Origin: Rubripirellula amarantea
GTDB taxonomy: Bacteria > Planctomycetota > Planctomycetia > Pirellulales > Pirellulaceae
NCBI RefSeq assembly: GCF_007859865.1
Contig: NZ_SJPI01000003.1
Location: 248,001 to 312,000, forward strand
Direction of reading: 5' to 3'
Length of the DNA stretch: 64,000 bases
Shown here: positions 26,404 to 46,847 of the stretch, one piece after another
How the letters are laid out: each line of letters begins with the position of its first letter
Numbering within the stretch: the first letter of the stretch is position 1
Program-made: the position numbers and the translations under genes
Notes under the pieces: generated by a model
Told to the model about the DNA's origin: nothing
What the model saw: only the letters and a program-made list of their open reading frames with translations
The model's database searches: none

Positions 26404-26426
26404 CTTAGCTACCCCGCTAGGACTTG
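26404..26426. repeat. Distal attachment-site core (23-bp direct repeat)
   Basis: Begins CTTAGCTACCCCGCTAGG and ends ACTTG; identical over 23 nt to 46763-46785. It corresponds to the 3' acceptor and T-arm part of tRNA-Gln plus five downstream bases. By the usual mechanism this copy is the original chromosomal tRNA 3' end, pushed away by integration. Confidence 0.95.
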
Positions 26427-26467
26427 CAAAACGTTCGGAAACCCAGGGAAATACAACACAACTGTCT

Positions 26468-26491
26468 CTGGCGGTGTCGCGGGCGGTGTCA
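26468..26491 (+). promoter_or_regulatory. Candidate integrase arm-binding site (distal arm)
   Basis: CTGGCGGTGT, four variable bases, then GGCGGTGTCA: two GGCGGTGT boxes 12 nt apart, starting 41 nt from the core. The same pattern, with 20 of 24 bases identical, occurs at 46642-46665 on the other side of the core in the same orientation. Confidence 0.65.
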
Positions 26492-26866
26492 CTGCTGCAT
26501 AGAACCGATGCTAATCTCGCCAAACTGTTTGAGGCTTATCAACAGTTGTCGCCAGCGGGCAGGTTGGAACTGATGGGCTTCTGCGATTCCATCTGCGACC
26601 AAGAACGTGACAGCCGAGCTCAGAGCTCAGAGCCACCAAGCGAGACTGTTCGACCGATCTAAAGTGAGGATCTATGACAGATAGGTATCTGGTCAGAACC
26701 ACCGTTGCGAGACGGTGGGGGTGGGGCCCATCGGAACCTACATAAATGCTTAACGTTCCCGCCTAACACTTTTTACGATCTTGAACACCGTTAATTTGGG
26801 CAAGGTTGGCTAGTACATTCCGAGTGGAGGTGCGAGCAATCGAAACGTCAAAATAAACTCGTCGAA

Positions 26867-27727
26867 CTATGTTCCTCTGATACCAAGATCGGGCTGTCCA
26901 GGTATCTGACGGCTACCTTGGCACGTTTTTACCAAGTCCAGGATTCGGAAGAACGGAAGGATGTTGCTTGCGGAGCCAGCGGCTAGCACCTGCTTGTCCT
27001 TGTCCCATCCACTCTGAAGTCCGACCAGAGCCAGACTCGGCAAACCGCTTGGATCGTCAGTCATACCGAATACCGGACCCCCGCTAAAGCCATCAATGTC
27101 TGTCAGATCACCCAGGTCGACGATGCGACCATAGAACCGATCAACCTGTTTGATTAGCGTCGCTGGCGGATCAAAGGTTCGTTCTAAGGCAAGCACGCCA
27201 TGACGGAAAGACAGGCCATTGTTTTCCGGTGTCGGCTGAGCTTTCTCAGAAGGAACACCAACGACAAAATATGTATCGAATTCCTGATCCAAGCTTGCGC
27301 ACTGTGTTTCCATTAGCGGCGTGATTCGATTGGCCTCCAGATTGTTCCTTACAAGTTCGGGGATCACGAGATATCCGTAGTCCAAGCCTTCCTCTTTAAA
27401 GTAGACGTGATGCCGGAATTCAAAGTCGGTATAGCTCATCGGAATCGAGGCCGATGCATCATCAAGAAAAATTGCGTCGGAACCGAGGCAGTCGACCAGC
27501 CGCCCACCGATGATTTCAATTTTGTTGTTCTTTAAGTGACGCTCGGTGTCCGCAAGTTTGTGTCCTGAGGTTGCGATCACCCAATCGTTTCCGCTCTCAA
27601 TGACAAAACCTGTTATCAGTGTGTAGTCGGCACCTCCATTAGCCTTGCTGTACTCCACGCAAAGCAGAACCATGTGATTCCCAAACAGGCTTGCCACGTA
27701 GTCAAGTTGTCTTCTTACCATTGCCAT
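26867..27727 (-). CDS. Trypsin-like serine protease of the defence operon
   Basis: About 286 residues (numbering below from a GTG at 27769 that overlaps the hsdR stop by 8 nt; ATG 27727 is preferred for its upstream TTGGAAAT). A chymotrypsin-fold triad can be read: His70 in WVIATSGHKLAD, Asp130 in GLDYGYLVIPE and Ser229 in DGFSGGPVFG. The GFSGGP motif is the classic nucleophile context and VGLQSGW follows as expected. There is no signal peptide or membrane span, so it should be cytoplasmic, unlike most HtrA-type proteases. It is the last gene of the RM operon, only 34 nt (or overlapping) after hsdR. Trypsin-like proteases occur as effectors or regulators in several defence systems; here it may act on an RM subunit or a host protein. 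This is inference. Confidence 0.78.
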   Translation of the reverse strand: MAMVRRQLDYVASLFGNHMVLLCVEYSKANGGADYTLITGFVIESGNDWVIATSGHKLADTERHLKNNKIEIIGGRLVDCLGSDAIFLDDASASIPMSYTDFEFRHHVYFKEEGLDYGYLVIPELVRNNLEANRITPLMETQCASLDQEFDTYFVVGVPSEKAQPTPENNGLSFRHGVLALERTFDPPATLIKQVDRFYGRIVDLGDLTDIDGFSGGPVFGMTDDPSGLPSLALVGLQSGWDKDKQVLAAGSASNILPFFRILDLVKTCQGSRQIPGQPDLGIRGT

Positions 27728-27761
27728 ATTTCCAATAAAACCGAATAATGTCAGACCTAGA

Positions 27762-30700
27762 TTAGGCACCCTTGGCGAGTAGCAAATCGAAGATGATGCG
27801 TTGGAACTTGGCTTGAAGTTCAGGGTTGTTGAGGTACTGGGTCATCTGGTTTTGATGGACTTCGCTGCTGTCCATGACTGCGTTATCGAGGGCTTCGGCG
27901 AAGTCTCCCAACATGGCTTGTTCGGGCGAGTTGTTTTCGATCTGGTGCATCACACGTTCGTTCTCGCGGACCTTGTCGCGGATCGTGTACGCATAGTTGA
28001 TCAAGTCCTGATCGGTAAGTCCGTCGGTGATGAAAAGTTCGTTCAGGCGCGCGATGATTTGCGAGAGCCATTCTTCCTGCTTCGATTTCGCTTTGCCAGT
28101 TCCCAGGTCCGATGAAACTCGAAGCCCCTCACCGCCTTCTTTGACCAAGATCAAATCTTGTTGCTTGATCTTGGACAAGCGGTAATGACTGAGGCCGACG
28201 GACGAAAGATCGATGGGATCGTCTTGCGGTGCTTCCTCACGTAGGAGCGGTGCCAAGTGCCGAGCGAAGAGGCTCAGCTTTTCCAGATCGGTGCTGTCGT
28301 AGTCAACGATCTGGGACATGAATTCATAGTAACGCGTGAATGAGACGAGGTCGGCTTTGAACATGCCGAGTGCGTCGAGTTCCTTCTTTGCCTCGTTCAT
28401 CTCGCCTTCCGCGTTGGCGATGAAGGTGGGGTCGCCCAGTTTCTTGGCGTGATTGTATAGCTTCTTGTGTTTCTCGTATTCGCCTCGGGCAACTTGGTAA
28501 CGGTGTTGCCAGCGATCCACGGCCGGGCGACAAACGTTGCTGATCACGGCGTTGCTCTTGCTTTTTAGAAAGAACACTTCACTGAACTGAGTCACTTCGG
28601 ACCATAAGAAAATGCCCGCTGAGCGTAACTTTTCATACAGGTCCCAAATCAGGTTCGGGTCCGACACGTCCAGCAGCTTGGCGGTTTCGTAGTACTCTTG
28701 GAACGCCTCCAGAATCTCGGCAGGTTCATTGACGAAGTCCAGCACGTACGTGTCCGTCTTAGCCGGAAACGTCCGGTTCAACCGCGACAGAGTTTGAACG
28801 CACTCCAACCCGCCAAGCTTTTTGTCAACGTACATCGCACACAGCTTGGGTTGATCGAACCCTGTTTGAAACTTCTTGGCGACGATCATCACGTTGAATT
28901 CGCCTGTGTCAAACGCCTTTCGCATGTCTCGACCTTTGAGGCCAGGATTCATTCCCAATTCAGTGAACTTGTCACCGATTAAGGCTTCGGCGTTAGGATC
29001 ATCGCTTCCGAACGCGACTTCCCCAGAGAATGCGACCATGGCCGCCAGTTGGCTGTACTTCTTTTTTGCAATGTACTTGTCGAACTCCAACTTGTATCGC
29101 ACCGCTTCCTTCCGCGAGCCAGTGACGACCATCGCCTTGGCGTGACCGCCCAGCAGCCCCATTACCGTCGTGCGATAGTGCTCGACGATCACCATCACTT
29201 TTTGCGAGATGTTGTAGTCGTGCAGCCGAACCCATTGGCTCAGTCGTACTTTGGCTTTCTTGGCGTCGACTTCACAATCGGGCTTGGCGACTTGTTGTGC
29301 CAAGTTGTAAGCGACCTTGTAACTGGTGTAATTTTGAAGCACATCCAGGATGTAGCCTTCCTCGATCGCCTGCCGCATGCTGTAAACGTGGAAGGCTTCC
29401 GGCTTGTTCTGCTTCGACACCGGTTCATCCGGCTTCGGACGACGCCCAAACAGTTCGAGCGTTTTGCTTTTCGGCGTCGCCGTGAATGCGTAGTAGCTCA
29501 GGTTCGCTGATGACTTACGAGCTTCGACGCTGGCGGTGAGAGCATCTTCGGCAGTCAATTCAACGTCGTCATCCGTCGCTTCACTGGACAACACTTCTTT
29601 TAGCTGCCCAGCGGTGCGTCCCGATTGTGACGAATGGGCTTCGTCGGCAATGATCGCGTAGCAGCGTTCTTTCAGGCTGACGCTATTCTCGATCGCTTTC
29701 AGTACGTGTGGGAACGTTTGGATTGTCACGATCACAATGGGCTGACTGCTCTCCAATGCCGCTGCTAGTTTTTCCGACTTCGATCCCTGGCCTTCGTCGC
29801 GGTTGATACGTCCCACGACACCGTCGGCATGTTCGAATTGGTAAATCGTGTCCTGCAGTTGGTCGTCCAACACCGTGCGGTCGGTGACAACGATCACACT
29901 GTGAAAAACCTTCTCGCCAGCGGCGTTATAGAGCGACGAAAGTTGGTGAGCTGTCCAAGCGATACTGTTCGACTTGCCGCTACCGGCGCTGTGTTGAGCC
30001 AGATACTTGTGGCCGGGGCCTACTTCGCGACTGGATTGAACGAGGCTGCGGACCAAGTCCCATTGGTGATAGCGGGGAAAGATCAGTGCTTCTTTCTTTG
30101 TCTTACGTCCGTCCCAATCCTCTTCGGTTTTGATTTCTAAGTGGATATAGCGGCCGATGATCTGCAGCAAATTCGCTGGCGCCAGCACTTCGTTCCATAG
30201 ATAGCTTGTCGCGTATTCGTGAACGTCGTCAGGCGTGTCATTGCCTGCACCGCCTTCCTTGGTCCCTTTGTTGAATGGCAGGAACTTTGTCTCGGCGCCA
30301 ACCAGTCGCGTTGCCATTGCGGCGCGATACTGGCTGACGGCAAAGTGAACCAGGGCACCGCGTTTGAAGGTCAGCAGCGGTTCGGGCTTGTTCGTTTCAG
30401 GGTCTTTGGGCAGCCGAGTTTTCTGGTACTGGCGAATCGCATTCTCGACCGCCTGTTTGAACTCGCTTTTCAGTTCCATCGTTACGATGGGGATGCCGTT
30501 GACGAACAACACCAAGTCGATCCGCCACCTCTTAGCCTGCTTACCGGTTTCCGTCAGTTGAGCGGCGGTGGCATAGGGACTGTAGACCAGCTCGGGCACC
30601 ACTCGCAGGATGTTACCCTCGTACATCGCCAGCGTATCGGGATTTAACCCGTGCTCAGGTTTGAACTGGCACATTTTGAACGACACCGACTTGTCCCGCA

Positions 30701-31004
30701 GTTCGTGTCGTAACACGCCGAGCGTACCGAACGTGCGAAGTGATTTGTCGCTTGCCTGTGGATCGGCTTTGGATAGCTGCGATGCAAGCTTGTCGATGAA
30801 CGCTTGCTCTGGGTTCGCCGGGTAAAGTTTCTCGTACTTCTCCCACGTCTTCGGCTGAGTCGTTTTGACGTAGGCCAAGCAGTCTTCGGTGTAGAGAGCC
30901 AGCTTTCGATCGTACTCGGCCGGATCGCCGAGTTTCCAGCCGCCAGCGACCATCTGGTTGATGATGTCAGCCTGGAAGCCGGCTTCTTTGGAGTCAGCGG
31001 TCAT
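27762..31004 (-). CDS. hsdR: Type I restriction enzyme, R subunit (HsdR)
   Basis: The motor and nuclease subunit of a type I restriction-modification enzyme: it translocates DNA with ATP and cuts unmodified DNA. At 1,080 residues the length is typical. The PD-(D/E)xK nuclease site is RIDLVLFVNGIPIVTMELKS (D163, E177, K179). The helicase core has Walker A AGSGKSNS (341-345) and a DEAH box, IIADEAHSSQSG (454-457), followed by TATPKSKT, then GFDQPKLCAMYVDK and a QTLSRLNR motif VI. The C-terminal helical part (about 780-1080) should bind the MTase core. The ATG overlaps the helicase stop by 4 nt (ATGA at 31001-31004), so it is translationally coupled to a gene not normally found in type I operons. 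Confidence 0.96.
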   Translation of the reverse strand: MTADSKEAGFQADIINQMVAGGWKLGDPAEYDRKLALYTEDCLAYVKTTQPKTWEKYEKLYPANPEQAFIDKLASQLSKADPQASDKSLRTFGTLGVLRHELRDKSVSFKMCQFKPEHGLNPDTLAMYEGNILRVVPELVYSPYATAAQLTETGKQAKRWRIDLVLFVNGIPIVTMELKSEFKQAVENAIRQYQKTRLPKDPETNKPEPLLTFKRGALVHFAVSQYRAAMATRLVGAETKFLPFNKGTKEGGAGNDTPDDVHEYATSYLWNEVLAPANLLQIIGRYIHLEIKTEEDWDGRKTKKEALIFPRYHQWDLVRSLVQSSREVGPGHKYLAQHSAGSGKSNSIAWTAHQLSSLYNAAGEKVFHSVIVVTDRTVLDDQLQDTIYQFEHADGVVGRINRDEGQGSKSEKLAAALESSQPIVIVTIQTFPHVLKAIENSVSLKERCYAIIADEAHSSQSGRTAGQLKEVLSSEATDDDVELTAEDALTASVEARKSSANLSYYAFTATPKSKTLELFGRRPKPDEPVSKQNKPEAFHVYSMRQAIEEGYILDVLQNYTSYKVAYNLAQQVAKPDCEVDAKKAKVRLSQWVRLHDYNISQKVMVIVEHYRTTVMGLLGGHAKAMVVTGSRKEAVRYKLEFDKYIAKKKYSQLAAMVAFSGEVAFGSDDPNAEALIGDKFTELGMNPGLKGRDMRKAFDTGEFNVMIVAKKFQTGFDQPKLCAMYVDKKLGGLECVQTLSRLNRTFPAKTDTYVLDFVNEPAEILEAFQEYYETAKLLDVSDPNLIWDLYEKLRSAGIFLWSEVTQFSEVFFLKSKSNAVISNVCRPAVDRWQHRYQVARGEYEKHKKLYNHAKKLGDPTFIANAEGEMNEAKKELDALGMFKADLVSFTRYYEFMSQIVDYDSTDLEKLSLFARHLAPLLREEAPQDDPIDLSSVGLSHYRLSKIKQQDLILVKEGGEGLRVSSDLGTGKAKSKQEEWLSQIIARLNELFITDGLTDQDLINYAYTIRDKVRENERVMHQIENNSPEQAMLGDFAEALDNAVMDSSEVHQNQMTQYLNNPELQAKFQRIIFDLLLAKGA

Positions 31005-34000
31005 GCATTCTCCGATTGACTACTCAAGTCGTAGTGGCAACTGGAAAACTCGGTTGTCGAATTACCCTTCAATTCACCGCTGATCATATCGTTGATAACA
31101 CTTTGAATCTTTTGTTTGCTTGCTCCAAATAGATCGTCAGAAGTAACAAGGCAATCCAATAATCCTTCGTTCTTGTAGGCCGCTAGACGATCTCGCCAGT
31201 TTGCGGAATAGTCCTGCCGATCGAGCATCCCAAGATGTTCCCAACGATAGGTTCGACCATCCACTCTAATGGTGAAGTCAGGCTTCACTTCTACCCGTTT
31301 GCCGTCAAAGGTAAGTTCCATTTTCTCTTCATACATGAAAGTCAACCTGCTTGCTTCTCGTTCAGCACGAAGAGCGTCGTAAATCATGTATTCAATCTTC
31401 GACTTAACATGGATACCCTTTTCTGGTTCATAGATCTTGCGAGCATCTCGCGGATTAGAAAACAGCGAACTGTTGCGACGGAGCAGATTGGATCTTTGTC
31501 TTGCAATTGTCAGAGGATTTTCACGCGCTGTTTTTTGCACGAGCAAGGTCAAAGCGCCTGTCGATCTTGTCATCGCCGTGTAAACCAATTCCCGGCAAAG
31601 GAGCGCCCTTCGTTCCGGGATGATTACGAAAACTTCGTCGAACTCGCTTCCCTGCGACTTGTGCACACTGATTGAGTAACCTGGCTCGAAATCTTCTTCA
31701 TCGAAATTGCTCCATTTCAAAGGGAAGTCGGATTCGCTGAACCACCCATTTCGTCCCGTTTTGTTGCTGCAGAGGACGCCTATTGAGCCGTTCGATAATA
31801 CAAGCACTCGCTTTTTCTCCTCCTTACTCCAAACATAGTGGTTGCGATTGCGAATAATTTTCTCAGAATGCCCGAATGCCGAACCGACCATGTACTCAGG
31901 ATCGTAACGCGACTTGGGATAACTATTTGCTTTGTAAAGTTCGCGAACAAGTTGGTTCGACATGATTGTTCCGCCAACACCGCCTCGGTACGGCGTAAGC
32001 AATTGTAGCGCCTCAACGTTCAGTTTGTTGTCTGGGTCACGTTGATCTTTAACAAAACCAGTTTCGTACTGATTGAAGAGTTCGTTGAACGCCTTTTCAC
32101 GGGTTTCTGCATCCGCTTCTTGGTCTATGCCGAGTCTGTCATTGACTCGACGCTTCAAAATCGCAGCTAGTTCTTCATGGGTAGTCCAATACTCAACGTT
32201 CAAGTGCTCGCTGATTGGTTCTTTTGAATCAGCGTTCAACAACTTTTTGTAGAGCTCTGTGTGATAACGGTTCTTCCCTGCAAACAAGAAAGCTGCATCG
32301 ACAACAGTGCTGTCCTGTTTTTGTCGGCAGTTCGAGCTCAATCGAACGACATGTTTCTCGGCTCGTCTAGCATCTCGGTTCATGTGCTCGAGGAGATCAA
32401 ACAGCACACGACCCATTCCAATCGGCGGAAGCTGGTTCTCATCGCCAACCAGAATCACTCGCTTGATGTTCGGTTCGTGTACCTCGATAGCGCGAAGCAA
32501 AACCGCAAACTTGGGTAGATCAACCATCGAAGTCTCGTCAATGATCAGATTCTCAATCGTCTCGTAATAACCTGACGACTGCATTGATGAGAGCTTGGAG
32601 ATGTCGTTCAAATAGAATCGAAGGGACGACCGATTGACCCAACGGTCGATTGTCTCAACGATCGCTCCGGTGTCTTCGCTGCGAACTCGCAACGCTGCTT
32701 TCCCAGTCGGTGCAAGTACCGTAACCGCCTCTCCAGCCTCGGTCAGCTTACCAATGATCTCTCGCAGCGCTCGAGTCTTGCCTGAACCTGGGCGACCTGT
32801 GACAAGAAAGAAACGCTGAGAAAGCACCCCGGATATTAGTCTTGTCCGCTCTTCGATAAACCGTTCCCTATCGAAACTGGGCAATTTGCACAACGCATCT
32901 GACTCAGCTTCAAGATGCGGCTTAATCCAAGCGTCATCAAACTTCAGGGCAGGAAGGTTCATCAGATGCTGAACAGCTCGTTCTACGTGTTCCTCAGCTT
33001 GCTTAGTTTCCTTGAGATAGTAAAAGCTGTTACCTTCAAAGTCGGCGAGGTGCAAACGCTCGGAAAAATGTTGAACGCACTTTTCCATTCCAAACTGCTC
33101 TTTGCTGACTGCAAATTGATTACGATAAAAAAGTGGATGCCTAGTCGTCTCGTCAACAATCTCGTCGAGCGCAGAATAGGTGTGGCCGTTATCCTGCTGC
33201 CTTCTAAGAAACATCACGGTAAAGGCGCGCAACCGTTCTGGGCCGACTGCGTTTAAGTCGAGAAGCGCGTCATTCCAGCAATCGTATCGATCATCGTCGG
33301 GAAACATTCCAATATCAATTTGGAAATAGTCAATTTTTGCGTCAGACGGCAGTTCTCGATCCTTGTCTATTTCTCGCTCAGCATCGTTATCTGTTGCTGC
33401 GACATAGTCCTCGCACAGGATGTACGGATTCGCCGTCAATTGTTCGTGCGTTACTTCGCGATCACCAAATGGATGATTCTCCTTCCTTCCGACCGCCAAT
33501 TTTGGAAACAAAATCCGTGAAAGCTGTCGTGGAGTTAGATCAAAAAGGGAAAGTCTTTTCAAAACCTTCTCCAAATTCCCGTACTGTCCGAACGCTTTTC
33601 TGCCGCGTCTCAATACCTTGGTTTGCCGTCGGGAGAGATACGTCGGGATATACGTGCTGGCAAGAAGCTCAAAGAACGTCTCGAGCGTCTCTTCATCCTC
33701 ATCAATGTTCTCTCGAATTGCTTCGATCAACCCATGGTCATTCGCTTCCTCCCAATTTGGGTCCCCGTCGCGTAATTCTGCCAAAAGGCCTGCGATTGAG
33801 GGAAGCCCCGGATATAGCCCACGGTGCTTCCAGCACTGCTCAATGAAACCGTCGATCCTTTCGATTTCATTTGTTACCTCCACAATACCATGATCTGAAA
33901 TCGCTTCGAAGGAACGCCGCATCTTGTAGAGAAGATAAAGACATTCATCGTCGCCAAATTGCTCACAAACGTATTTGAAGCCGCTTTGAATCGCCGGTTC

Positions 34001-34750
34001 TTCGACAAGCACTTTGATTTCGTCAAATTTCTTTTCATCGCTCGGATTATCTTCGACGTGATCCAGGTACTCATGGTATGGAAGAATGACGCCGGTGTCT
34101 TTAATGGAATAAGACAATCTCATCGACCAGTTGCGAGTCGGAAAATTTCGCATACTCTTCTTTTTCTTGAGGTTCTTCAGTTCCTCGTCAGTGAACTCAT
34201 ATTCCCCTGATCTCTCAACGTCTTTCAACAACGCGCACCCAACAACGGCATATCTGACTTCATCTGCCGACACAGGGTTGTCATAATTCAGATAGAAAAA
34301 AACCAACGAATTGCCCGGTGTGACGCGATCAACATATCTGTCAACTCTTTCATCCAAGTCGGCGGGGTATTGGCCATGCTTCTTTTTCGCGTTGTCACTA
34401 TGAGTCAAGGATAATCTGAACGGCCATGAAAAAACTGAGTTCGCCGGAAGCGTCTCTGCTATCTGCTTGTCGTCACGGTAGTTTTGAAATGGGTGTGCGT
34501 GAATGACGTTGGTTTCGTTCTCCGCAAAGGCCGACGATGACCAATAGCAAGGTGGCATGTATTGAGGCAAATTGGAGTCAATAGGCTGACCCGCCATCGA
34601 AACTTCCAGGGCAGTTTGTTTGTCGCGTGCAATACGCTCAGAAAGCAAAGAGCGGCTGCCGGTACAGTAGCTGTTTGCACTTGGTTTCTTGCAAACGCAT
34701 CCGTTCCATTTGTTGTCGTGCCATGCAAGGCGAACAGATATATGGCGCAT
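31001..34750 (-). CDS. RecD-like helicase with C-terminal nuclease-like domain
   Basis: A 1,249-residue superfamily 1B (RecD-type) helicase. Walker A is TGRPGSGKTRA (652-659), motif II NLIIDETSMVD (about 735-744), motif III VGDENQLPPIG (768-778), and motifs V/VI are ISVHKSQGSEFDEV and ELVYTAMTRS. Residues 1-640 are a long extension starting with LAWHDNKWNGCVC (9-20) and Cys29, a possible metal- or nucleotide-handling motif. The C-terminal 130 residues hold KPDF (D1158) and RWEHLG (E1171-H1172), which resembles the PD-(D/E)xK variant ending in EHxG. ATG 34750 is supported by an upstream CTGGAAAA and because WHDNKWNG lies just after it; ATG 34597 is the fallback. Expected to unwind and perhaps cut DNA. 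The gene follows the methylase-HEPN gene by 102 nt and overlaps hsdR. Confidence 0.88.
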   Translation of the reverse strand: MRHISVRLAWHDNKWNGCVCKKPSANSYCTGSRSLLSERIARDKQTALEVSMAGQPIDSNLPQYMPPCYWSSSAFAENETNVIHAHPFQNYRDDKQIAETLPANSVFSWPFRLSLTHSDNAKKKHGQYPADLDERVDRYVDRVTPGNSLVFFYLNYDNPVSADEVRYAVVGCALLKDVERSGEYEFTDEELKNLKKKKSMRNFPTRNWSMRLSYSIKDTGVILPYHEYLDHVEDNPSDEKKFDEIKVLVEEPAIQSGFKYVCEQFGDDECLYLLYKMRRSFEAISDHGIVEVTNEIERIDGFIEQCWKHRGLYPGLPSIAGLLAELRDGDPNWEEANDHGLIEAIRENIDEDEETLETFFELLASTYIPTYLSRRQTKVLRRGRKAFGQYGNLEKVLKRLSLFDLTPRQLSRILFPKLAVGRKENHPFGDREVTHEQLTANPYILCEDYVAATDNDAEREIDKDRELPSDAKIDYFQIDIGMFPDDDRYDCWNDALLDLNAVGPERLRAFTVMFLRRQQDNGHTYSALDEIVDETTRHPLFYRNQFAVSKEQFGMEKCVQHFSERLHLADFEGNSFYYLKETKQAEEHVERAVQHLMNLPALKFDDAWIKPHLEAESDALCKLPSFDRERFIEERTRLISGVLSQRFFLVTGRPGSGKTRALREIIGKLTEAGEAVTVLAPTGKAALRVRSEDTGAIVETIDRWVNRSSLRFYLNDISKLSSMQSSGYYETIENLIIDETSMVDLPKFAVLLRAIEVHEPNIKRVILVGDENQLPPIGMGRVLFDLLEHMNRDARRAEKHVVRLSSNCRQKQDSTVVDAAFLFAGKNRYHTELYKKLLNADSKEPISEHLNVEYWTTHEELAAILKRRVNDRLGIDQEADAETREKAFNELFNQYETGFVKDQRDPDNKLNVEALQLLTPYRGGVGGTIMSNQLVRELYKANSYPKSRYDPEYMVGSAFGHSEKIIRNRNHYVWSKEEKKRVLVLSNGSIGVLCSNKTGRNGWFSESDFPLKWSNFDEEDFEPGYSISVHKSQGSEFDEVFVIIPERRALLCRELVYTAMTRSTGALTLLVQKTARENPLTIARQRSNLLRRNSSLFSNPRDARKIYEPEKGIHVKSKIEYMIYDALRAEREASRLTFMYEEKMELTFDGKRVEVKPDFTIRVDGRTYRWEHLGMLDRQDYSANWRDRLAAYKNEGLLDCLVTSDDLFGASKQKIQSVINDMISGELKGNSTTEFSSCHYDLSSQSENA

Positions 34751-34852
34751 CAGGGTTTTCCAGTTACAGGGTGAGTCGTTTTGATGTTCCGCAGGAAACC
34801 TCCCGCGATCGTTTGGTCGATGAGGTCCTGCTAAAAAGCGGCTATTTTCAAG

Positions 34853-37240: not shown

Positions 37241-38618
37241 GCGAGCTCCATTTCCGCTTCGAGTGGGCGATCGGCGGAAGAACGCTTCCAGCCACGCACG
37301 TCGATCTTGCCGGTGACGGCGGCGGAGATGAGTGCGGTGCGGCGTTCTTGGAGAAGTTCAATTGCGTCTTCGGACCTTAGAATGAGTCCGTTGAACTTTT
37401 CGCGTTGGTGATCCAAGTAGTCTGCTATATGAGATTGTTCTTCTGGCCTAGGAAGTGGAATGTTATACTTCTTGACGTTTTGAACATTCAGGTTGCCGAC
37501 ACCACCACCAGTTACAGTTCCTTGGAAATTGAGGAACTTGCAGTAGTCCGAGCTGAAGAAGTATTTGATGAACCTGTTCACGGCAATGGAGGGATCAACT
37601 CTGATGTGCGTCAGACTAACATAGATTGAGAACTCCATATCAATATCAACGACGCATGCGTCTCCAATTCCGGCACCGACTCGTGTTACCAAGATGTCGC
37701 CAGCTAAAGGTCTTCTGTGCCGTGTGAGCTGCTCATGTAATTCGTGCGGGATATAGTTGTACTTGTGAAGCGAGAGCCGATTTTGACGGATGTTCTGCGC
37801 AGACAAAAACGGCATTCCTTCATCTTCATCAACGTATGTTGGCGTTGAAGCTACGCCGCAGGTAATGATGGGCGCGAAGTGACCGAACTTCCAGATCTTC
37901 CAATGCTCGGGCACTTCGCCCAACCACTCGACGCCGGAATCTCGCATGGGGGCGTCGGGGTTCAAGCCTTTGGTGACCGCATGACTGATGAAGGCCTGAC
38001 GTTTCTCCCCGAGCAAGGCGATCAGCTGCTGCTGCTTCTCAATCAACGCATCAATCTTCGCCGTCTCGTAGTCCAGGAACCGCGCGATTTGCTTTTGTTC
38101 GTCAGGCGTTGGAATCGGGCACTCGATGTTTCCAAGCAATTCAAGATTTAGTCCGTCACGCAAATCGCCGCCTGCCATGTTGCGGATGTTCTGGTAGTTC
38201 GTTGTTAGCCACCAGAACAAGTATCGCGGCTTCAACAAAATGGTCGGAACGATGGCGGCCATCGACTGGTTGCAGGTAGTTGAGATTCCGAGTTGCGCTA
38301 CCATGCCCTTGGTTTTGCCTTGACCGGCCAACGCAAGCACTAATCCGCCATTCGGAATCCACTTTGCGCTACTGTTTGCGAAAGCGGCTTTTGAAATCAA
38401 GGCAGAGTGTTCGCGAACTATTCCTTGGTTTACGGCACCCGAATTGATCCAAGGAATAGTCCCATTCTCCCAGAATTCAGTAACTTTCTTCGACGGTGTT
38501 CCACCTGCATAGATATGTGCCGCCCATCGAAGGCGAACTCTTCTCCATGAGGCAGGAAGAACATCGCACCACTCAACTCCTGATGCCAAGTATTGTGGAT
38601 ATGGAGCGTAATGCGACT

Positions 38619-38622
<4 letters not shown>
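37237..38622 (-). CDS. hsdS: Type I RM specificity subunit (HsdS)
   Basis: 461 residues that set the DNA recognition sequence of the HsdM/HsdR complex. Two target-recognition domains alternate with conserved helices: TRD1 begins [14 protein letters not shown] and ends in [19 protein letters not shown], with helix [23 protein letters not shown]2 begins [16 protein letters not shown] and ends [19 protein letters not shown]. The TRD stretches look poorer in G+C than the conserved helices (row 37561-37620 has 28 of 60 G+C by hand count, row 37981-38040 has 34 of 60), as expected for swapped specificity cassettes. The GTG start at 38622 has a strong GGAGG in front and overlaps the hsdM stop (GTGA). 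The stop overlaps the methylase-HEPN start. Confidence 0.95.
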
Positions 38623-41066
<2,444 letters not shown>

Positions 41067-42025
41067 GAAACGTCTTGTTCCAAAGGTGTCAATTCAAGGA
41101 TGCCGCAGCAGCTTGATTTAACGCCGGAACGAAAACTTCGCCCCCAGTGCCCGCAAGACTGCCTACCAATCGGGCTGAGTCAGACGCGTGACGCCTTGGT
41201 AGGCATGGCATCACACATCTGCCTCATTTGCTGGACAAGCAGTGGCCGCCGCCTGTCCTCCCGAAGGGACCAAGTTTAGGGGAAACCAGCGACGCAAGCA
41301 GCAGGGTGGAGAATTGGTTGTTTTCATTCATTTTTGGCCGGTCGCCGCTCTCGAGCGATACCGATTTGCTCAAAAGTCGACTCAGGTAGTTCTCGAGATC
41401 GATTCGGGCCGTATGCCCCTACGATTTCTTCTCCATTGAGAATGAAGAAAAGGCTCGGTTCACCGGCAAATCAGAACCACTAAGGACAAGCCACGCTGGA
41501 TTGGCGTTCCATAGCATACATCTGGCGGATCACCGGCTGAGATCTAGTTGGAGGCGTTCGCTCGTGTACGAAGACGATCTACTTTCGAGTACTCATCGCA
41601 TAAACGTTCGTCGTCAAAGACACGGCAGATTGGACAAACATGCATGTCGAGGTTAGCGCCCGCCAAATCAGCTCGAAATCCCCGCGTTTTGCATGGTTAG
41701 AGCACCAACAGAAAGTGGAGGGTGACGCCCGAACTATTGCCCCCAGAACTTGAACACTCCCCCCACCCGTTTTCCGGCAAAACCAAGCCTTTACAGTGAG
41801 CGGTAAAGCATCACTACTTCCGCGATTTAACGTTCTCCAAACAGAAAACGCGATCTGCTACATTGCGGTTTCAGCGGGTTTGGTCGCCCGCGTTTTTCGT
41901 CATCGCCTGACCCGTGATGGCTTTCAAAGGTAAGCATCCGACGGGATGCCTTGCGATCCACTGAACGAACGGCTCTTCCTTTTTGTACGGGAGGTGGATC
42001 GGCCTGCGCGCGTGGGAGAGCAAGA
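41067..42025. other. Divergent intergenic region of the element, no gene seen
   Basis: A 959-nt stretch between the leftward defence operon and the rightward mobility genes, so it should hold promoters for both and possibly a replication origin or transfer site. No frame looks like a protein. A perfect 9-bp inverted repeat, GCCTACCAA ... TTGGTAGGC, spans 41161-41204 with a 26-nt spacer, about 100 nt upstream of hsdM. I see no iterons or A+T-rich block that would make an origin convincing. Confidence 0.55.
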
Positions 42026-42826
42026 ATGAGTTGCGAAGAGTCGATTGATTCCTTCAGGGAACGTGTTGCGAAGGCGGAACAAAAGGACGCGGAACTGACA
42101 ATTCTGCGTGCGTGGATTGGAGAGATGAACGAGGCGATCGACTCCCTTCCGTATTATCCTGACGAACCGGAAGAGATGGTTGGAAGCGTTGTCCAGCTAG
42201 CCAAAGCAATGAGTTCACCGATCGGCGATCGGTTCTTGACCAACTACTTACGACTCCAATCCGAAGTGATTGACAACGTTCAAACGCTTAATCACGACGA
42301 ATTTCTGACAAGAACTCGTGAGGAAGGCGCTGAGCTCAAACAAGCTATGCAAAGGGAGGCGCGACGGCGATTTGAGCATGCTGATCTCGTACACGACGCT
42401 CAGTCTCTCAATGAAACGGAGATTGTTGATCGGCTTCGGGAGATGAGCAGCAAACGGTTGGCCGACTGGGAAGATTTTTTCTGGGACATCCAGCGATCGG
42501 TACTGATCGAGGAACGTTCCGACGAGGTGCAAAACGCAGCAGCGAAAAGTGATCATCCAAAATCTGTCCAGGAACGTAAGAACGAACTTTTTGAATGGTC
42601 GGTTCGCGAATTCACGTTGGGTGAAACTGGCAATGCTAAGGACTTGCAAGAGGTCGTTAACAAGGAAGCTGTCAAACGTGGACTGACGCCGTATGACTCA
42701 GGAACCGGCAATGGTGTCGCGGATGCTTACAAACGAGCTTACAAGCGAATCCACGGACGCAGGTACGACAAAGACAATCGAGGGCGAGGTCGGAAACGCA
42801 AATCAAATAGCGAAATAGCGGAATAG
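42026..42826 (+). CDS. Element protein of unknown function
   Basis: A 266-residue soluble protein from ATG 42026, which has GGGAGAG at a good distance. A longer frame from 41951 adds a poor-quality N-terminus and is not used. The sequence is highly charged and mostly helical (for example EEMVGSVVQLAKAM, AELKQAMQREARRRFEHAD), with a basic, Gly/Arg-rich C-terminus (KRIHGRRYDKDNRGRGRKRKSN) that could bind nucleic acid. I do not recognise a family. It is the first of the plus-strand mobility genes and may be a regulator or accessory replication factor; that is context only. Confidence 0.7.
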   Translation: MSCEESIDSFRERVAKAEQKDAELTILRAWIGEMNEAIDSLPYYPDEPEEMVGSVVQLAKAMSSPIGDRFLTNYLRLQSEVIDNVQTLNHDEFLTRTREEGAELKQAMQREARRRFEHADLVHDAQSLNETEIVDRLREMSSKRLADWEDFFWDIQRSVLIEERSDEVQNAAAKSDHPKSVQERKNELFEWSVREFTLGETGNAKDLQEVVNKEAVKRGLTPYDSGTGNGVADAYKRAYKRIHGRRYDKDNRGRGRKRKSNSEIAE

Positions 42827-42904
42827 TATTCCGTCATCTGTCGGTATCGCTAATTCGGTGACGTTGGCAATCTGTTGGAACCTGCATTCCACGGAGCAAA
42901 TGCC

Positions 42905-43096
42905 ATGAAAAGTTTCGAGACACTTCCAACGCCGGAGTTGGTGGCGAACCAAATTGATCGCGCCCGCCGAGAACGGTCCTTACTTCGCAAGCTTTACCGC
43001 CTTTGCGTTGAGGCGACAGAGTTTCGACGTGATACTGAATCCTCGACAGCCAGTCACAGCGATGACCCCAAAAATGAAGGGGGCGAACGTGAGTGA
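42905..43096 (+). CDS. Small element protein of unknown function
   Basis: A 63-residue charged protein from ATG 42905 with GGAGCAAA in front (MKSFETLPTPELVANQID ...). It is helical, with the pattern RARRERSLLRKLYRL, and has an acidic C-terminus. Its end overlaps the start of the HTH gene (GTGAGTGA), so the two are translationally coupled. Function unknown; small proteins at this place in planctomycete islands often lie next to an excisionase-like gene. Confidence 0.6.
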   Translation: MKSFETLPTPELVANQIDRARRERSLLRKLYRLCVEATEFRRDTESSTASHSDDPKNEGGERE

Positions 43097-43385
43097 CATG
43101 CTACTAAGGGACACCGATCCCGATGAACTCGTAGCGGCAATTGCCAAGGCAGTAGCGATAGCACTTGCTTCGACGTTAGAGGCTTCCCGCGAACCGCTGA
43201 TAGTCGACGGCAATGAGATGGCGAGACTCGCGAGCGTATCGAGTGCTACTCTCGATCGGTTGCGCCGGTCTGGATCAATACCGAGCTTCTTGGTTGGATC
43301 GTCGCGACGATACCAACCAGATGAAGTGATCGCGGCGTTGATCGAAGCTTCCGCGTCAAATATTGGCGGTGACTCCCGTGGCTGA
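43089..43385 (+). CDS. Excisionase-like helix-turn-helix protein
   Basis: About 98 residues from GTG 43089 (ATG 43098 is the alternative). The C-terminal half is a MerR/excisionase-type HTH: LIVDGNEMARLASVSSATLD, then RLRRSGSIPSFLVGSSRRY with the wing-like arginines and a following helix DEVIAALIEA. Proteins of this kind bind attachment sites to promote excision, or regulate the integrase. The N-terminal half is Ala-rich and helical (DELVAAIAKAVAIALAS). It is coupled to the small gene upstream and overlaps the start region of the RepA-like ATPase downstream. Confidence 0.78.
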   Translation: MSDMLLRDTDPDELVAAIAKAVAIALASTLEASREPLIVDGNEMARLASVSSATLDRLRRSGSIPSFLVGSSRRYQPDEVIAALIEASASNIGGDSRG

Positions 43386-44568
43386 ACGGGAGATTCCAAA
43401 TCCAAACGACACACGTGGTTCTTTGGAGACGAGAGAACAAACGCCAAACGGGCAGTACGTAACTTTGGAAACGCCTGAACAAATAAAGGAGGCATTGATA
43501 AAGGCTGCTGCATTCTGCCACACGATTCGCGTCTCGAACGATCGCATTGAGTTCGAGGGAGGTAGAGCGACTGAATTCCACCGTCTGTTTGATCCAATTC
43601 AAAGCGAGAGGTTGGTCGAGTATGCGGTAAAGGCAATCCCAGAAATCTACAGAACAGAAAAGATGATCGAAACCGATTTGCTTCGGCACAAGTTTGGAAT
43701 ACCTAGGTCAATCACGTCAGCTCAACTTGACAGAGATCAGTGCGTGAATCGTTACCTAGTTGATGGCATCTTGGCGGAATCTCAATCGGCTGTCATCGCG
43801 GGAGCACCCAAAACGATGAAGACATCAATTGCGGTAGATCTTGCGATCTCACTTGCAAACGGCACTCCCTTTCTCAGTCGATTCAAAGTCAATGAGCCTC
43901 AGCGAGTTCTTTTTCTTTCTGCTGAATCGGGCAAAGCAAGTCTCAAAGAAACGGCCAAACGGGTTGCAACTTCGAAAGGCCTCTGCTTGTCGGCAATGGA
44001 GGCAATTTACTGGAATTTCTGGGTTCCACGTGTTCGTGAGGAACAGCACCTGACCGTACTCGATCACCAGATTGATGAATCGAAGGCGAAAGTAGTGATC
44101 TTGGATCCGCTTTACTTAATGCTTGAGGGAACCCATCAAGCAAGCGTCAGTGACAACGGTCAACAGTTGCAAACGCTCTGTGGTCGTTTTCTCGCAGGCG
44201 GTGTAACTCCTGTGCTTGTTGATCACGTAAAGCGATCAAGTCTGAACTCTTCAACATTCAAGCCACTTGAGCTTCTCGACATTACCGGCGCGGGTAAGGC
44301 CGAGTACTTTCGGCAATGGATGCTGATAGGTCGGCGTGAGAAGTTCAATCCCGAAAAGCGAGTACATCGCCTGTGGCTGACGGTTGGTGGTAGCGCAGGC
44401 CACTGCGGATTGCATGAGTTGGCAATTGATGAATCACGAAGCGAGGACAACCAACGCAGTTGGCTTGTTAACTTCAAATGCGAGCCGGATTCAGTTGTTC
44501 GAAAGATGAACGAATACTCAAGAAAACTCTCCAACCCGTTTGATCATCGGAACGGAGTCGGTACGTGA
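43378..44568 (+). CDS. RepA/RecA-like ATPase of the element
   Basis: About 396 residues. Walker A is AGAPKTMKTSIAVDLA (G147-T154 counted from TTG 43363) and Walker B is KVVILDPLYLML. Other motifs fit hexameric RepA-type helicases/ATPases: NEPQRVLFLSAESGK and a C-terminal PVLVDHVKRSS. The family, found in plasmids and integrative islands, unwinds DNA at replication origins or serves as an accessory ATPase. The start is ambiguous between TTG 43363, GTG 43369 and GTG 43378; the last, preceded by GGCGG, is used. Its stop overlaps the GTG of the winged-helix gene. Presence of this gene suggests the excised circle can replicate. Confidence 0.85.
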   Translation: MAEREIPNPNDTRGSLETREQTPNGQYVTLETPEQIKEALIKAAAFCHTIRVSNDRIEFEGGRATEFHRLFDPIQSERLVEYAVKAIPEIYRTEKMIETDLLRHKFGIPRSITSAQLDRDQCVNRYLVDGILAESQSAVIAGAPKTMKTSIAVDLAISLANGTPFLSRFKVNEPQRVLFLSAESGKASLKETAKRVATSKGLCLSAMEAIYWNFWVPRVREEQHLTVLDHQIDESKAKVVILDPLYLMLEGTHQASVSDNGQQLQTLCGRFLAGGVTPVLVDHVKRSSLNSSTFKPLELLDITGAGKAEYFRQWMLIGRREKFNPEKRVHRLWLTVGGSAGHCGLHELAIDESRSEDNQRSWLVNFKCEPDSVVRKMNEYSRKLSNPFDHRNGVGT

Positions 44569-44915
44569 TCACGTCGAAAAAGAAGTCAACGACTCGGTTC
44601 GAACAGATGAATCATCTTGTCGACGAGGTGATTCAGGGTCTTTCGCCTCTCCAGGCGGCAGCACTGTTCGTTTGTTTTCGACATGCCAATATTCAGGGCG
44701 AGTTCAAACTTTCGGCGACACGCCTGGCCAATACTTTGGGAATTGGAAAACGGACTGCCCAGCGAGTTTTCGACGGCTTGCAGCGGGAAGGTGCGTTAGA
44801 AGTAATCAAGCCTCAGAAGGGCACGATACCAAGAACGTTCTGGATAACCGGCAGGCCGATTAGAGGTGACACTGCGACCGACCCTAGCGAACGCAAAATA
44901 CCTTGCCGAGATTAG
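44565..44915 (+). CDS. Winged-helix DNA-binding protein of the element
   Basis: A 116-residue protein from a GTG overlapping the ATPase stop (GTGA at 44565-44568). Residues about 25-90 form a winged helix: GLSPLQAAALFVCFRHANI, then KLSATRLANTLGIGKRTAQRV as HTH and GALEVIKPQKGTIPRTFWI as wing. It likely assists replication initiation with the RepA-like ATPase or regulates it. The end (RGDTATDPSERK) is echoed by RGDSQTDPYRN in a short frame 30 nt downstream, so the C-terminus may have been shortened by a frameshift; see findings. Confidence 0.75.
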   Translation: MITSKKKSTTRFEQMNHLVDEVIQGLSPLQAAALFVCFRHANIQGEFKLSATRLANTLGIGKRTAQRVFDGLQREGALEVIKPQKGTIPRTFWITGRPIRGDTATDPSERKIPCRD

Positions 44916-44942
44916 TTTGATTGCAGCCTAGGAGTGTCACAG

Positions 44943-45032
44943 ATGTCGCCTAGGGGTGACTCCCAGACCGACCCATACAGAAACAAACAACTTGTTGCCG
45001 CCTATTTGAAGCAGGCGGCTCTCAAACTTTGA
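44943..45032 (+). CDS. Short frame, possible lost C-terminus of the winged-helix protein
   Basis: 29 codons from ATG 44943: MSPRGDSQTDPYRN, then KQLVAAYLKQAALKL. The RGD-x-x-TDP core repeats the end of the preceding protein, and the tail looks like a real amphipathic helix. It has no clear ribosome-binding site. Either a separated tail of the upstream gene or a tiny independent gene. Confidence 0.3.
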   Translation: MSPRGDSQTDPYRNKQLVAAYLKQAALKL

Positions 45033-45041
45033 AAGAGACCG

Positions 45042-45275
45042 ATGAACCAAGAACGACGTGCACAAGGAAAGATCAGTCAACCTAAGCAGTCTAAGAAACA
45101 AAAGTTGCGAGCGAGAAAACGACGCGAATTGAAACTACCGAACACTCGTGACTTTAAACTGCTTTGCTCCGACTGCCGTCAATTTGCAACGATTAAGCAA
45201 CATCAGTTGATGAACCGGTTTAGGTTAAGGTGTCCAGCCTGCGGAGGACCGTTGAACAGGCCTAGCCAGGCTTGA
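45042..45275 (+). CDS. Small zinc-ribbon protein
   Basis: A 77-residue protein with a very basic N-terminal half (KQSKKQKLRARKRRELKL) and two CxxC pairs, LLCSDCRQF and RCPACGGPL, that should bind one zinc ion. The basic part suggests nucleic-acid binding. It lies between the replication genes and the integrase of the element. Function unknown; similar small ribbon proteins occur next to island integrases. Confidence 0.65.
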   Translation: MNQERRAQGKISQPKQSKKQKLRARKRRELKLPNTRDFKLLCSDCRQFATIKQHQLMNRFRLRCPACGGPLNRPSQA

Positions 45276-45410
45276 TTTTCGTTGACGGACCATCAGAGAA
45301 ACCTTAGCCTGTCGTTTGTCACGGCTAGGCTTAGCGGCTGAACGGCAGTTTCCTGACCGCCCCGCCGTGGCATTCAAATTATCTTCAGGACCAATGCAGG
45401 AGTTGGAACG

Positions 45411-46847
45411 ATGGCTTCACTACGAAAAGAGAACGACCGCGGCCGTACAGGATGGCGGCTTCAGTTTCGGTTTAATAACAAACGTCGATCGCTTTGGCTT
45501 GGCGGAATGAGCAAGCGCGCAGCCGAGACTGTGATGCGCCATGTCGATGAGTTGGTTCGATCAAGACAGGCGGCGTCGCACCCTGATCCTGCAACGTTGA
45601 AATGGGCATCCGATCTTGAAGGCAGGCTGCGCGAATCGCTTGTGCGTCTTGGGTTGGTCGATCCTCTTCGCGATCGCTCAGTAGGAGATGAGGGGCGATT
45701 GCTCGGACCGTACTGCGATGCGTACATCAAGGGGCGATCCGATTTGGCTCCTGGTACTTTGGACAACTACGGTCACGCAAGACGTTTGCTGGTTACAAAG
45801 TTCGGCGAGCGACAACCCTTGGGTTCCATCACTGCTGAGGACGCCGAGCGGTGGCGACGTTGGTTGTTGGCAAAGCCGGTTCAATACGACAAAGAAGGAA
45901 ACGCCACCAAGACAATGGCCCCAGCAACCGTGTCCAAGCACATCAAGCGGGCCAAAACGATGTTTGCATCAGCGGTCAAGGACCGTTTCATTCCAGAAAA
46001 TCCGTTTGCGAATGTACGAGCAGGGAGCGAATCGAACCGCGACCGTGACCACTTCATTGATAGGGCTATGACAGCGAAGGTGCTTCACGCTTGTCCCAAT
46101 CCGGAATGGAGGCTGATCTTCGCTCTAGCGAGATTTGGCGGACTGCGTCGATGCGAAATCCTCGCGATCACCTGGAGAGACATCCTATGGGACGTTGAGA
46201 GACTGCGAATCGACTCACCAAAGACAGGAGTTCGCTTTTGTCCAATCTTTCCAGAGTTGATGCCGTTCCTTCGAGAAGCCTTTGACGCCGCTCCCGAGGG
46301 TTCGATTCGGTGCATTTCGTCCTATTTCACGGGAACGAACCTAGGCACCCTTCTCAATGGAATCGTTGAACGCGCCGGCTTGGAGTCCTGGCCCAAGACA
46401 ATGCAGAACCTGCGGGCAACCCGGCGAACGGAACTTCAAGAAACAGTTCTGGATCACGTCGTAAACGCCTGGATGGGTCATTCTTCCAAGACGGCAGCCA
46501 AACACTACCTCCAAGTGACCGACGACCACTGGGCCGCTGGCGCGAATGAACTAACCGGCGAGCCGATCGTTTTGGAAACAAAGGGCGATGAGACCTGCGA
46601 CCAAGATGACACGAGCAACCAAGATGACATCGCAAACGATTCTGGCGGTGTTCCCGGCGGTGTCATCCCTGCCGATGCAGCAACCATCAGCGACACTCAC
46701 GACATGAAAAAAGCCTTAGAAACCGTTGTTTCTGAGGCTTTTAGATGTTTGCCGATTGGCGGCTTAGCTACCCCGCTAGGACTTGAACCTAGAATAACTG
46801 AACCAAAATCAGTAGTGTTGCCAATTACACCACGGGGTAAGGAGTGA
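45411..46847 (+). CDS. Tyrosine integrase, C-terminus swapped by integration
   Basis: 478 residues as integrated; ATG 45411 is preceded by GGAGTTGG. Core-binding region about 95-200, catalytic domain about 215-385 with Arg246 (FGGLRRCEIL), Arg335 (MQNLRATRRTEL, Gln/Asn where His is common), His357 (WMGHSSKTAA) and nucleophile Tyr366 (KHYLQV). From about residue 430 the frame runs through a terminator hairpin, the attachment core (residues 452-458) and antisense tRNA-Gln, so the last 20 residues (EPRITEPKSVV ... PRGKE) come from chromosomal DNA. The original tail of 78 codons lies at 26427-26662. It should recombine the element into and out of the tRNA-Gln 3' end. Confidence 0.95.
   Translation: MASLRKENDRGRTGWRLQFRFNNKRRSLWLGGMSKRAAETVMRHVDELVRSRQAASHPDPATLKWASDLEGRLRESLVRLGLVDPLRDRSVGDEGRLLGPYCDAYIKGRSDLAPGTLDNYGHARRLLVTKFGERQPLGSITAEDAERWRRWLLAKPVQYDKEGNATKTMAPATVSKHIKRAKTMFASAVKDRFIPENPFANVRAGSESNRDRDHFIDRAMTAKVLHACPNPEWRLIFALARFGGLRRCEILAITWRDILWDVERLRIDSPKTGVRFCPIFPELMPFLREAFDAAPEGSIRCISSYFTGTNLGTLLNGIVERAGLESWPKTMQNLRATRRTELQETVLDHVVNAWMGHSSKTAAKHYLQVTDDHWAAGANELTGEPIVLETKGDETCDQDDTSNQDDIANDSGGVPGGVIPADAATISDTHDMKKALETVVSEAFRCLPIGGLATPLGLEPRITEPKSVVLPITPRGKE
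46642..46665 (+). promoter_or_regulatory. Candidate integrase arm-binding site (integrase arm)
   Basis: CTGGCGGTGT, four variable bases, then GGCGGTGTCA, 97 nt before the core and inside the integrase gene. It matches 26468-26491 at 20 of 24 positions. The two copies are read in different frames, so protein-level selection does not explain the likeness. Confidence 0.65.
46707..46738 (-). terminator. Element-borne terminator for tRNA-Gln, inside the integrase gene
   Basis: On the minus strand: GCCTCAGAAAC, loop AACG, GTTTCTAAGGC, then six T. It lies 25 nt past the core, directly downstream of tRNA-Gln, replacing the displaced chromosomal terminator at 26348-26378. The integrase codes through it (HDMKKALETVVSEAF). 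Confidence 0.8.
46763..46785. repeat. Proximal attachment-site core within tRNA-Gln
   Basis: Identical to 26404-26426 over 23 nt. On the minus strand it covers the 3' half of the T-arm, the acceptor stem, the discriminator base and five bases beyond, so integration leaves the tRNA intact. Confidence 0.95.
46768..46839 (-). tRNA. tRNA-Gln (anticodon TTG)
   Basis: 72 nt on the minus strand. Acceptor TACCCCG pairs perfectly with CGGGGTA and is followed by discriminator G. The anticodon stem ACTGA/TCAGT encloses TTTTGGT, giving anticodon TTG. T-arm CTAGG-TTCAAGT-CCTAG. No CCA is encoded. It follows rex on the same strand and is the integration target of the element. Confidence 0.97.

What the first reader, a model, noticed from the sequence alone, without database searches (positions are those of the whole stretch)
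26404..46847. Integration splits the integrase gene: attP lies inside its reading frame and the C-terminus is swapped
The 23-bp core sits at integrase codons 452-458. As integrated, the frame runs on through antisense tRNA-Gln and ends after 20 more codons (478 residues). At the far end, the same core in the same frame is followed by 78 open codons. The excised circle would thus encode an integrase of about 536 residues with a different tail. Integration would act as a built-in switch on the recombinase, similar in logic to phages whose attP lies in a regulatory gene (known for some mycobacteriophage repressors). The frame match over the core is seen directly; the functional switch is inference.
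Basis: partly seen in the sequence, partly recalled or inferred. Interest (0 to 1): 0.9.

Follow-up and report, generated by a model that had tools for sequence, protein, structure and literature searches.

The report
Integrase that trades tails on integration
A mobile DNA island in a planctomycete-like bacterium carries its insertion site inside its own integrase gene, so inserting into the chromosome cuts a conserved tail off the enzyme and replaces it with an unrelated stretch read from a tRNA gene; relatives in many bacterial genomes share the arrangement and viral genomes show the uncut gene, suggesting an enzyme whose form depends on whether the element is in or out.

Summary
Alone, 78 open codons could be chance; comparison shows they are not. 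In 25 homologous elements delimited without regard to frame (eight tRNA types), the integrase frame stays open past the distal core in all 25, and a leave-one-out profile picks that frame of six in 24 (E<0.005 in 22). The tail is conserved as protein, and in a full-length homologue AlphaFold2 folds it as a two-helix hairpin on a disordered linker; the window's integrated form is disordered to its end. The joined gene exists: five distinct uninterrupted integrases in viral contigs (three with exact terminal repeats, as in circular assemblies) and joined frames at tandem-element junctions. One close pair (88% identical catalytic part) shows the tail in the free form and antisense-tRNA residues in the integrated form. 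The attP (arm repeats, core, arm repeats) and a terminator for the invaded tRNA lie inside the gene. So integration does swap isoforms. Conservation of the tail implies a job in the unintegrated state; that the long form integrates while the short one excises or rests is inference. Nearest known: archaeal SSV-type integrases and mycobacteriophage integration-dependent immunity; it is a member of neither.

The parts
26404..46785 (.). Integrated element, about 20.36 kb, between the two cores
   Evidence: Exact 23-bp direct repeat, tRNA intact at the right end
46763..46785 (+). Proximal core, inside int codons 451-459 and over the 3' end of tRNA-Gln (antisense)
26404..26426 (+). Distal core, same frame as in int
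45411..46847 (+). Integrase gene as integrated (478 aa); residues 1 to about 380 folded (N-terminal, SAM-like and catalytic domains); 381-478 predicted disordered, the end read from antisense tRNA-Gln
26427..26662 (+). Detached integrase tail, 78 codons and stop, continuous with int in the excised circle
   Evidence: no Pfam family up to E 1
26507..26602 (+). Conserved helical part of the tail (L..ll..W/Y..L....R..); limits approximate, set by eye
   Evidence: hairpin in the model of the homologue L227; this window's own tail was not folded
46644..46663 (+). Candidate arm-type repeat pair GGCGGTGT x2, 12-bp period, 5' of the core, inside int
26470..26489 (+). Candidate arm-type repeat pair GGCGGTGT x2, 12-bp period, 3' of the core, inside the tail frame
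46700..46745 (-). Terminator-like hairpin for tRNA-Gln supplied by the element, encoded antisense inside int
   Evidence: Fold -14.7 kcal/mol, z -5.1; the simple scan did not report it
46767..46839 (-). tRNA-Gln (TTG), integration target, intact
26351..26382 (-). Displaced terminator left of the distal core, host side
   Evidence: a tRNA-Gln without antisense ORF in a same-genus genome (L309) has a similar hairpin directly behind the tRNA (likeness judged by eye)
26294..26403 (+). Host-side flank that resembles the int 3' region: probable scar of an earlier element at the same tRNA
   Evidence: Alignment score 86, highest of 300 shuffles 50
42954..43385 (+). Small HTH protein, excisionase-like candidate recombination directionality factor
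   Evidence: PHROG 66 E 2.5e-5, weak
43363..44568 (+). ATPase of the primase-helicase/RepA kind

Best explanation
The element's attP lies inside the 3' part of its tyrosine-integrase gene. SHOWN by sequence and prediction: uninterrupted, the gene encodes N-terminal, SAM-like and catalytic domains, then a disordered linker whose DNA is the attP (arm repeats, core, arm repeats), then a conserved tail that folds in the model as a two-helix hairpin. Recombination at the core moves the tail-coding piece to the far end of the integrated element, and the gene ends instead after a few codons read antisense through the tRNA. The catalytic part is untouched, so the integrated gene can still encode an active enzyme. 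FOLLOWS: as part of Int the tail can be made only from a circle, a free viral genome or a tandem junction, so its protein-level conservation means that the long form does something useful there. INFERRED: the long Int is the integrating form (the hairpin aiding assembly or synapsis of the integrative complex, or its stability) and the short Int is the resident form, quiet or excision-biased together with an RDF. Integration thus resets its own enzyme without a regulator.
For: Coordinates and frame. 48 of 54 homologous int loci examined run into an antisense tRNA; the int ORF of 69 of 80 named loci ends in or near one. In the 25 elements with core inside int, the int frame is open >=40 codons from the distal core in 25 of 25, other forward frames in 15 of 50; the leave-one-out profile prefers that frame in 24 of 25, E<0.005 in 22. 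58 distinct tails: mean entropy at codon positions 1/2/3 is 1.47/1.27/1.71 bits, with synonymous codons mixed at conserved Leu, Arg and Pro. Tail profile hits 103 of 144 relative genomes at E<=0.01 and 58 of 294 across the phylum at E<=1e-4; 14 hits on 80 loci against 0 on the same DNA reversed. Joined ORFs: 8 of 74 viral loci (five distinct integrases) and three tandem arrays; exact terminal repeats in 3 of 7 such viral contigs. Close pair L240/L242. Arm repeats exceed 12 shuffles in 22 of 25 elements and 5 shuffles in 5 of 5 joined viral genes. Structure: hairpin block means 83, 96, 94, 70; integrated C-terminus under 50.
Against: No functional, expression or read data. The window's own joined form was not seen; it rests on homologues. 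In 27 of 54 loci no distal repeat was found within the stretch held (short contigs, no tRNA, at most 20-40 kb), so they say nothing. Three of 25 delimited elements (L064, L077, L090) lack a significant tail match although the frame is open. Six of 54 int loci were not seen to run into a tRNA. 55 of 74 viral relatives have neither a recognised tail nor an antisense-tRNA end; many end soon after the catalytic Tyr, so the hairpin is not needed for recombination in general. In two of the five distinct joined viral genes (L225/L226, L241) no tRNA-derived core longer than 11 bp was recognised, which is chance level. The closest pair in two states is only 88% identical. Rows of the codon test were picked by a protein profile, which favours protein conservation.
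Confidence: 0.8

Rival explanations
1. The isoform swap is real but the tail acts on protein level or turnover: the long form is short-lived or autoinhibited, as with the mycobacteriophage BPs repressor, and integration yields a stable enzyme.
For: BPs and relatives do this with their repressor (PMC4557955, PMC8092301, passages).
Against: Tail ends vary and none of the 20 full-length ones among the 22 rows ends in -AA (this tail ends VRPI); conservation lies in a predicted hairpin, not at the last residues. A stable active Int in the integrated state would favour loss of the element (inference).
Confidence: 0.15
2. The tail is kept mainly because the attP right arm must lie there; the reading frame is incidental.
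For: The first part of the tail does carry the arm repeats, with conservation more like DNA.
Against: The helical part lies beyond the arm repeats, is conserved at codon positions 1 and 2 with free synonymous change, is in frame in 24 of 25 and is predicted to fold.
Confidence: 0.04
3. The tail works as a separate small protein, made from its own start in the integrated state.
For: The distal frame is open upstream through the core to 26315, with a TTG at 26381.
Against: Free and tandem forms carry it as part of Int. Promoter and ribosome site at the distal end were not tested beyond one scan of 26250-26450, which found no promoter-like site.
Confidence: 0.03

Closest known systems
Archaeal SSV-type ('suicidal') integrases: SSV1, pTN3, pT26-2
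   Same: Recombination site inside the integrase gene, which integration splits (PMC8371274, passages)
   Different: [quoted passage not shown] here the catalytic part survives and only a C-terminal module is lost. No PF16795 here. [quoted passage not shown] these are bacterial.
Integration-dependent immunity of mycobacteriophage BPs and relatives
   Same: attP inside a lysogeny gene, integration changes the protein's C-terminus (PMC4557955, PMC8092301, passages)
   Different: There the gene is the repressor, the virus form typically carries a degradation tag and the short form is the active one; here the gene is the integrase and the lost part is a conserved, probably folded module.
Int gene fusions of helper-embedded satellites
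   Same: Integration creates a fusion between int and a host-side gene fragment, noted as an annotation problem in 14 calls (PMC10111431, passages)
   Different: The fusion is to an upstream late-gene fragment; no attP inside int and no severed tail is described in the passages I saw.
State-dependent int promoter switching in ICEKp1
   Same: Integration state changes int output (PMC13023037, abstract and outline)
   Different: Transcription is switched there; the protein itself here.
Lambda int and sib retroregulation (recalled, no call)
   Same: attP next to the int 3' end; integration separates int from a 3' control element
   Different: Acts on mRNA, does not alter the protein.

Membership tests
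Tyrosine recombinase / phage integrase | Catalytic-domain profile | tested here: met
   PF00589 E 1.1e-6, PF13102 E 5.6e-7; PHROG 1 E 5.6e-40; Tn1549 Int, XerA and lambda Int are the best structural matches to the homologue's model
Tyrosine recombinase / phage integrase | Catalytic Arg, Lys, Arg, Tyr | tested here: met
   R246, K271, R335, Y366 invariant in 25 aligned homologues; their assignment as catalytic is recalled
SSV-type suicidal integrase | attP inside the integrase gene | tested here: met
SSV-type suicidal integrase | Integration separates the N-terminal part from the catalytic domain | tested here: not met
   Catalytic Tyr 366, core from codon 451
SSV-type suicidal integrase | Phage_integr_3 domain (PF16795) | tested here: not met
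   Not among the Pfam hits listed up to E 1
Integration-dependent immunity system | attP inside the repressor gene | tested here: not met
   The gene is an integrase
Integration-dependent immunity system | C-terminus of the product changed by integration | tested here: met
Integration-dependent immunity system | Viral form unstable, short form active | not testable with these tools
   Needs protein experiments
Lambda-type attP with arm sites | Direct arm repeats on both sides of the core | tested here: met
   Repeats beyond 12 shuffles in 22 of 25 elements; not in G058a, G075a, L088
Lambda-type attP with arm sites | N-terminal arm-binding domain that binds them | tested here: inconclusive
   Three strands and a helix at the N-terminus in both models, likeness to arm-binding domains recalled; binding not tested

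The most novel reading that the evidence does not exclude
A bacterial class of self-editing integrases: the recombination product is the switch. Long Int with its C-terminal hairpin, made only from circles and free viral genomes, is dedicated to integration; the act of integration amputates the hairpin, leaving a catalytically complete short Int that is silent or excision-specific. Directionality is thus written into the protein by the DNA state.
Probability: 0.5. Interest if true: 0.92.

Novelty: new variant of a known kind. Interest (0 to 1): 0.85.

Why it matters
How an integrase knows which way to run is usually answered by partner proteins or promoters. Here the DNA reaction would edit the enzyme. 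[quoted passage not shown] It also warns annotators and tool builders: integrases read from integrated genomes of this family lack their other C-terminus, and an enzyme cloned from such a chromosome may not be the integrating form.

Tried and rejected
Chance: open length alone does not exclude it; the comparative frame test does. DNA-only constraint: rejected for the helical part, accepted for the arm repeats. A regular expression for the tail motif was too strict (1 of 25 in frame, 0 in the other two frames) and was replaced by the leave-one-out profile. Alignment A1 holds 22 of the 25 delimited tails; G058a, L064 and L077 were left out of it (two of these lack the motif), but all 25 are in the leave-one-out test. 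Single-sequence scans of genome contigs and viral contigs found no relative; alignment A2 did (best 80 kept in the first). Annotated plasmids gave 2 records and phages 13, at 22-26% identity and at most 47% coverage. I found no empty site with the window's own left neighbour genes next to the tRNA. tRNA-Gln copies followed directly by a terminator, without an antisense ORF, occur in L298 and L309. For 4 of the first 14 loci no distal core was found.

Literature: nine counted searches. In the listings and the passages I read I saw no report of a bacterial integrase whose conserved C-terminus is swapped by integration. Only listings were seen for most papers, most subscription papers are not held, and older reports of attP overlapping int 3' ends may exist. 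PMC12884075 and PMC5506516 (passages) held nothing of the kind.

Full report
OBSERVATION. The numbers in the finding hold. The 23-bp core is exact at 26404-26426 and 46763-46785 and occurs nowhere else in the window at up to three mismatches or, exactly, in the assembly. The integrase ORF is 45411-46847, 478 aa; whole codons 452-458 are in the core; the tRNA-Gln gene is antisense at 46767-46839. At the distal core the same frame is open for 78 codons; joined, 536 codons. The open length alone is not strong evidence: 18% of random positions and frames in the window and 2.2% of local shuffles reach it.

HOMOLOGUES. 88 of 147 genomes searched around this one hold a relative at E<=1e-30. I took 53 of those loci plus the window, 54 in all, oriented them, and looked, without regard to frame, for the longest exact repeat of the tRNA 3' region upstream of int. 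48 of the 54 int frames run into an antisense tRNA; in 4 no tRNA was found near and 2 end before it. A distal repeat was found in 27 of 54; in the other 27 none was found within the stretch held, which was often cut by a contig end. In 25 of the 27 the core lies inside int, with repeats of 14-26 bp, elements of 4.9-20.4 kb and tRNA-Val 5, Glu 4, Met 4, Gln 3, Lys 3, Arg 3, Asn 2 and Ser 1 as targets. In all 25 the int frame stays open at least 40 codons from the distal core start (median 69), against 15 of 50 for the other two forward frames, and it is the longest of three in 20. A profile built from the other 24 tails prefers the int frame among six in 24 of 25, with E<0.005 in 22; L064, L077 and L090 are the three without a significant match.

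SELECTION ON PROTEIN. 58 distinct tails share L..ll..W..L....R..il.i. Mean entropy is lowest at codon position 2 and highest at 3 (1.47, 1.27, 1.71 bits over 42 columns), and conserved Leu, Arg and Pro use many synonymous codons. The part next to the core is conserved more like DNA (GGA-AAA-ACG and the arm repeats). The rows came from a protein profile, which leans towards this result; its seeds were 22 of the 25 delimited elements. With that profile 103 of 144 relatives have a hit at E<=0.01, and most of those listed lie in frames of about 60-180 codons, that is detached; 58 of 294 genomes drawn evenly from the phylum hit at E<=1e-4. On the 80 named loci, some of which are the same places as seeds and most of which do not reach the distal end, the profile gave 14 hits; on the same DNA reversed, none. 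The tail has no Pfam family.

THE JOINED FORM EXISTS. Of 20 stretches fetched because a tail hit lay in a long frame or near an int, six hold body and tail in one ORF (L123, L128, L132, L134, L135, L136), some degenerate or cut by a contig end. Among 80 named genome loci and 74 viral loci, 11 ORFs hold both. Three are in genome contigs (L149 Roseimaritima sediminicola, L170, which is the same place as L135, and L208), where a second int and its tRNA lie downstream: tandem elements, the upstream int reading through the core into the next element's tail. In one other tandem (L124) the upstream int is out of frame with the next tail. The other eight are viral contigs without a tRNA in the stretch held; by their C-termini they are five distinct integrases. 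Of seven such contigs whose ends I read, three have exact direct terminal repeats of 44, 119 and 80 bp (L226, L227, L241), as expected of circular assemblies; four have none. The repeats are of ordinary complexity and occur once at each end read. L241 also has portal and terminase genes and L249 a terminase. A tRNA-derived core lies in frame between body and tail in L249/L294 (21 bp, tRNA-Val), L227 (14 bp, tRNA-Glu) and L239/L240 (13 bp); in L225/L226 and L241 only 11 bp match, which is chance level against the tRNAs I hold. All five do have a matching pair of 20-mers (19 or 20 of 20) 184-229 bp apart inside the gene, shuffles 13-15, as the arm repeats would give. The clearest pair is L240 (free, tail attached) and L242 (at tRNA-Ser): 88% identical over 226 residues of the catalytic part and alike up to the core, then tail in one and antisense tRNA in the other. 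Of all 74 viral loci 8 are joined, 3 end in an antisense tRNA, 8 at a contig end and 55 are other, many of them distant relatives that end soon after the catalytic Tyr. In a tree of 134 bodies the classes cluster but do not form single clades.

ATTP ANATOMY. In 22 of 25 elements the best direct 20-mer shared between the int side and the tail side beats all 12 shuffles; G058a, G075a and L088 do not. It starts 110-166 bases before and 37-55 bases after the core in those 22, mostly as a tandem with a 12-bp period whose letters differ between elements but agree between the arms of one element. In the window these are GGCGGTGT at 46644 and 46656, and at 26470 and 26482. Both models start with three strands and a helix, as expected of an arm-binding domain (recalled). 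Between the left arm and the core the int gene also encodes, antisense, a terminator-like hairpin for the tRNA it has entered. The displaced one lies left of the distal core and looks, by eye, like the hairpin directly behind an unoccupied tRNA-Gln in a same-genus genome (L309). In seven of the fourteen tRNA-Gln copies printed an antisense ORF covers the tRNA 3' end (three of the fourteen are cut short by the stretch); five of the seven contigs were integrase hits, so the site looks like a hotspot.

STRUCTURE. The uninterrupted integrase of L227 was folded with 53 other rows: body mostly above 90, linker 393-460 below 50, then two helices 458-475 and 478-495, with block means 83, 96, 94 and 70. 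The window's integrated form, folded with 24 homologues, is mostly confident up to about residue 380 and below 50 from 381 to the end but for one residue, the antisense-tRNA residues included. So integration exchanges a probably folded module for an unstructured end. The best solved-structure matches of the model are Tn1549 Int, XerA and lambda Int (by sequence).

MECHANISM. The catalytic domain is kept in both states. As part of Int the hairpin can be made only from circles, free viral genomes or tandem junctions; selection on it therefore points to a task there, most simply integration. The short form is what a single integrated copy makes, and excision must be done by it or by another integrase. 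A small HTH protein at 42954 is a weak match to excisionases. Which form does what is inference.

KNOWN SYSTEMS. [quoted passage not shown] In integration-dependent immunity attP lies in the repressor gene (PMC4557955 and PMC8092301, passages). ICEKp1 switches int promoters by state (PMC13023037, abstract and outline). Integration-made fusions of int with an upstream gene fragment are mentioned for satellites (PMC10111431, passages). None of these, as far as I read them, severs a conserved module of the integrase while sparing catalysis.

Noticed in passing
26294-26403: The host-side flank resembles the int 3' region, terminator included: probable scar of an earlier element at this tRNA.
   Followed up: partly
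   Followed up: partly
27762-41066: Cargo reads by eye as a type I restriction-modification system with a large helicase and a second methylase-like gene; no family search was run on it.
   Followed up: no
L223, L235, L243, L284 (viral contigs): Further viral integrases with long C-termini that look, by eye, like core plus a diverged tail; not matched by the profile and counted as 'other'.
   Followed up: no
L257-L283, L285-L288 (viral contigs): Many related viral integrases with short C-termini and no recognised tail; where their attP lies is unknown, and they would make natural controls.
   Followed up: no
L299, L300, L302, L303, L304, L307, L311: The same tRNA-Gln is overlapped by an antisense ORF in seven same-genus genomes.
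   Followed up: partly
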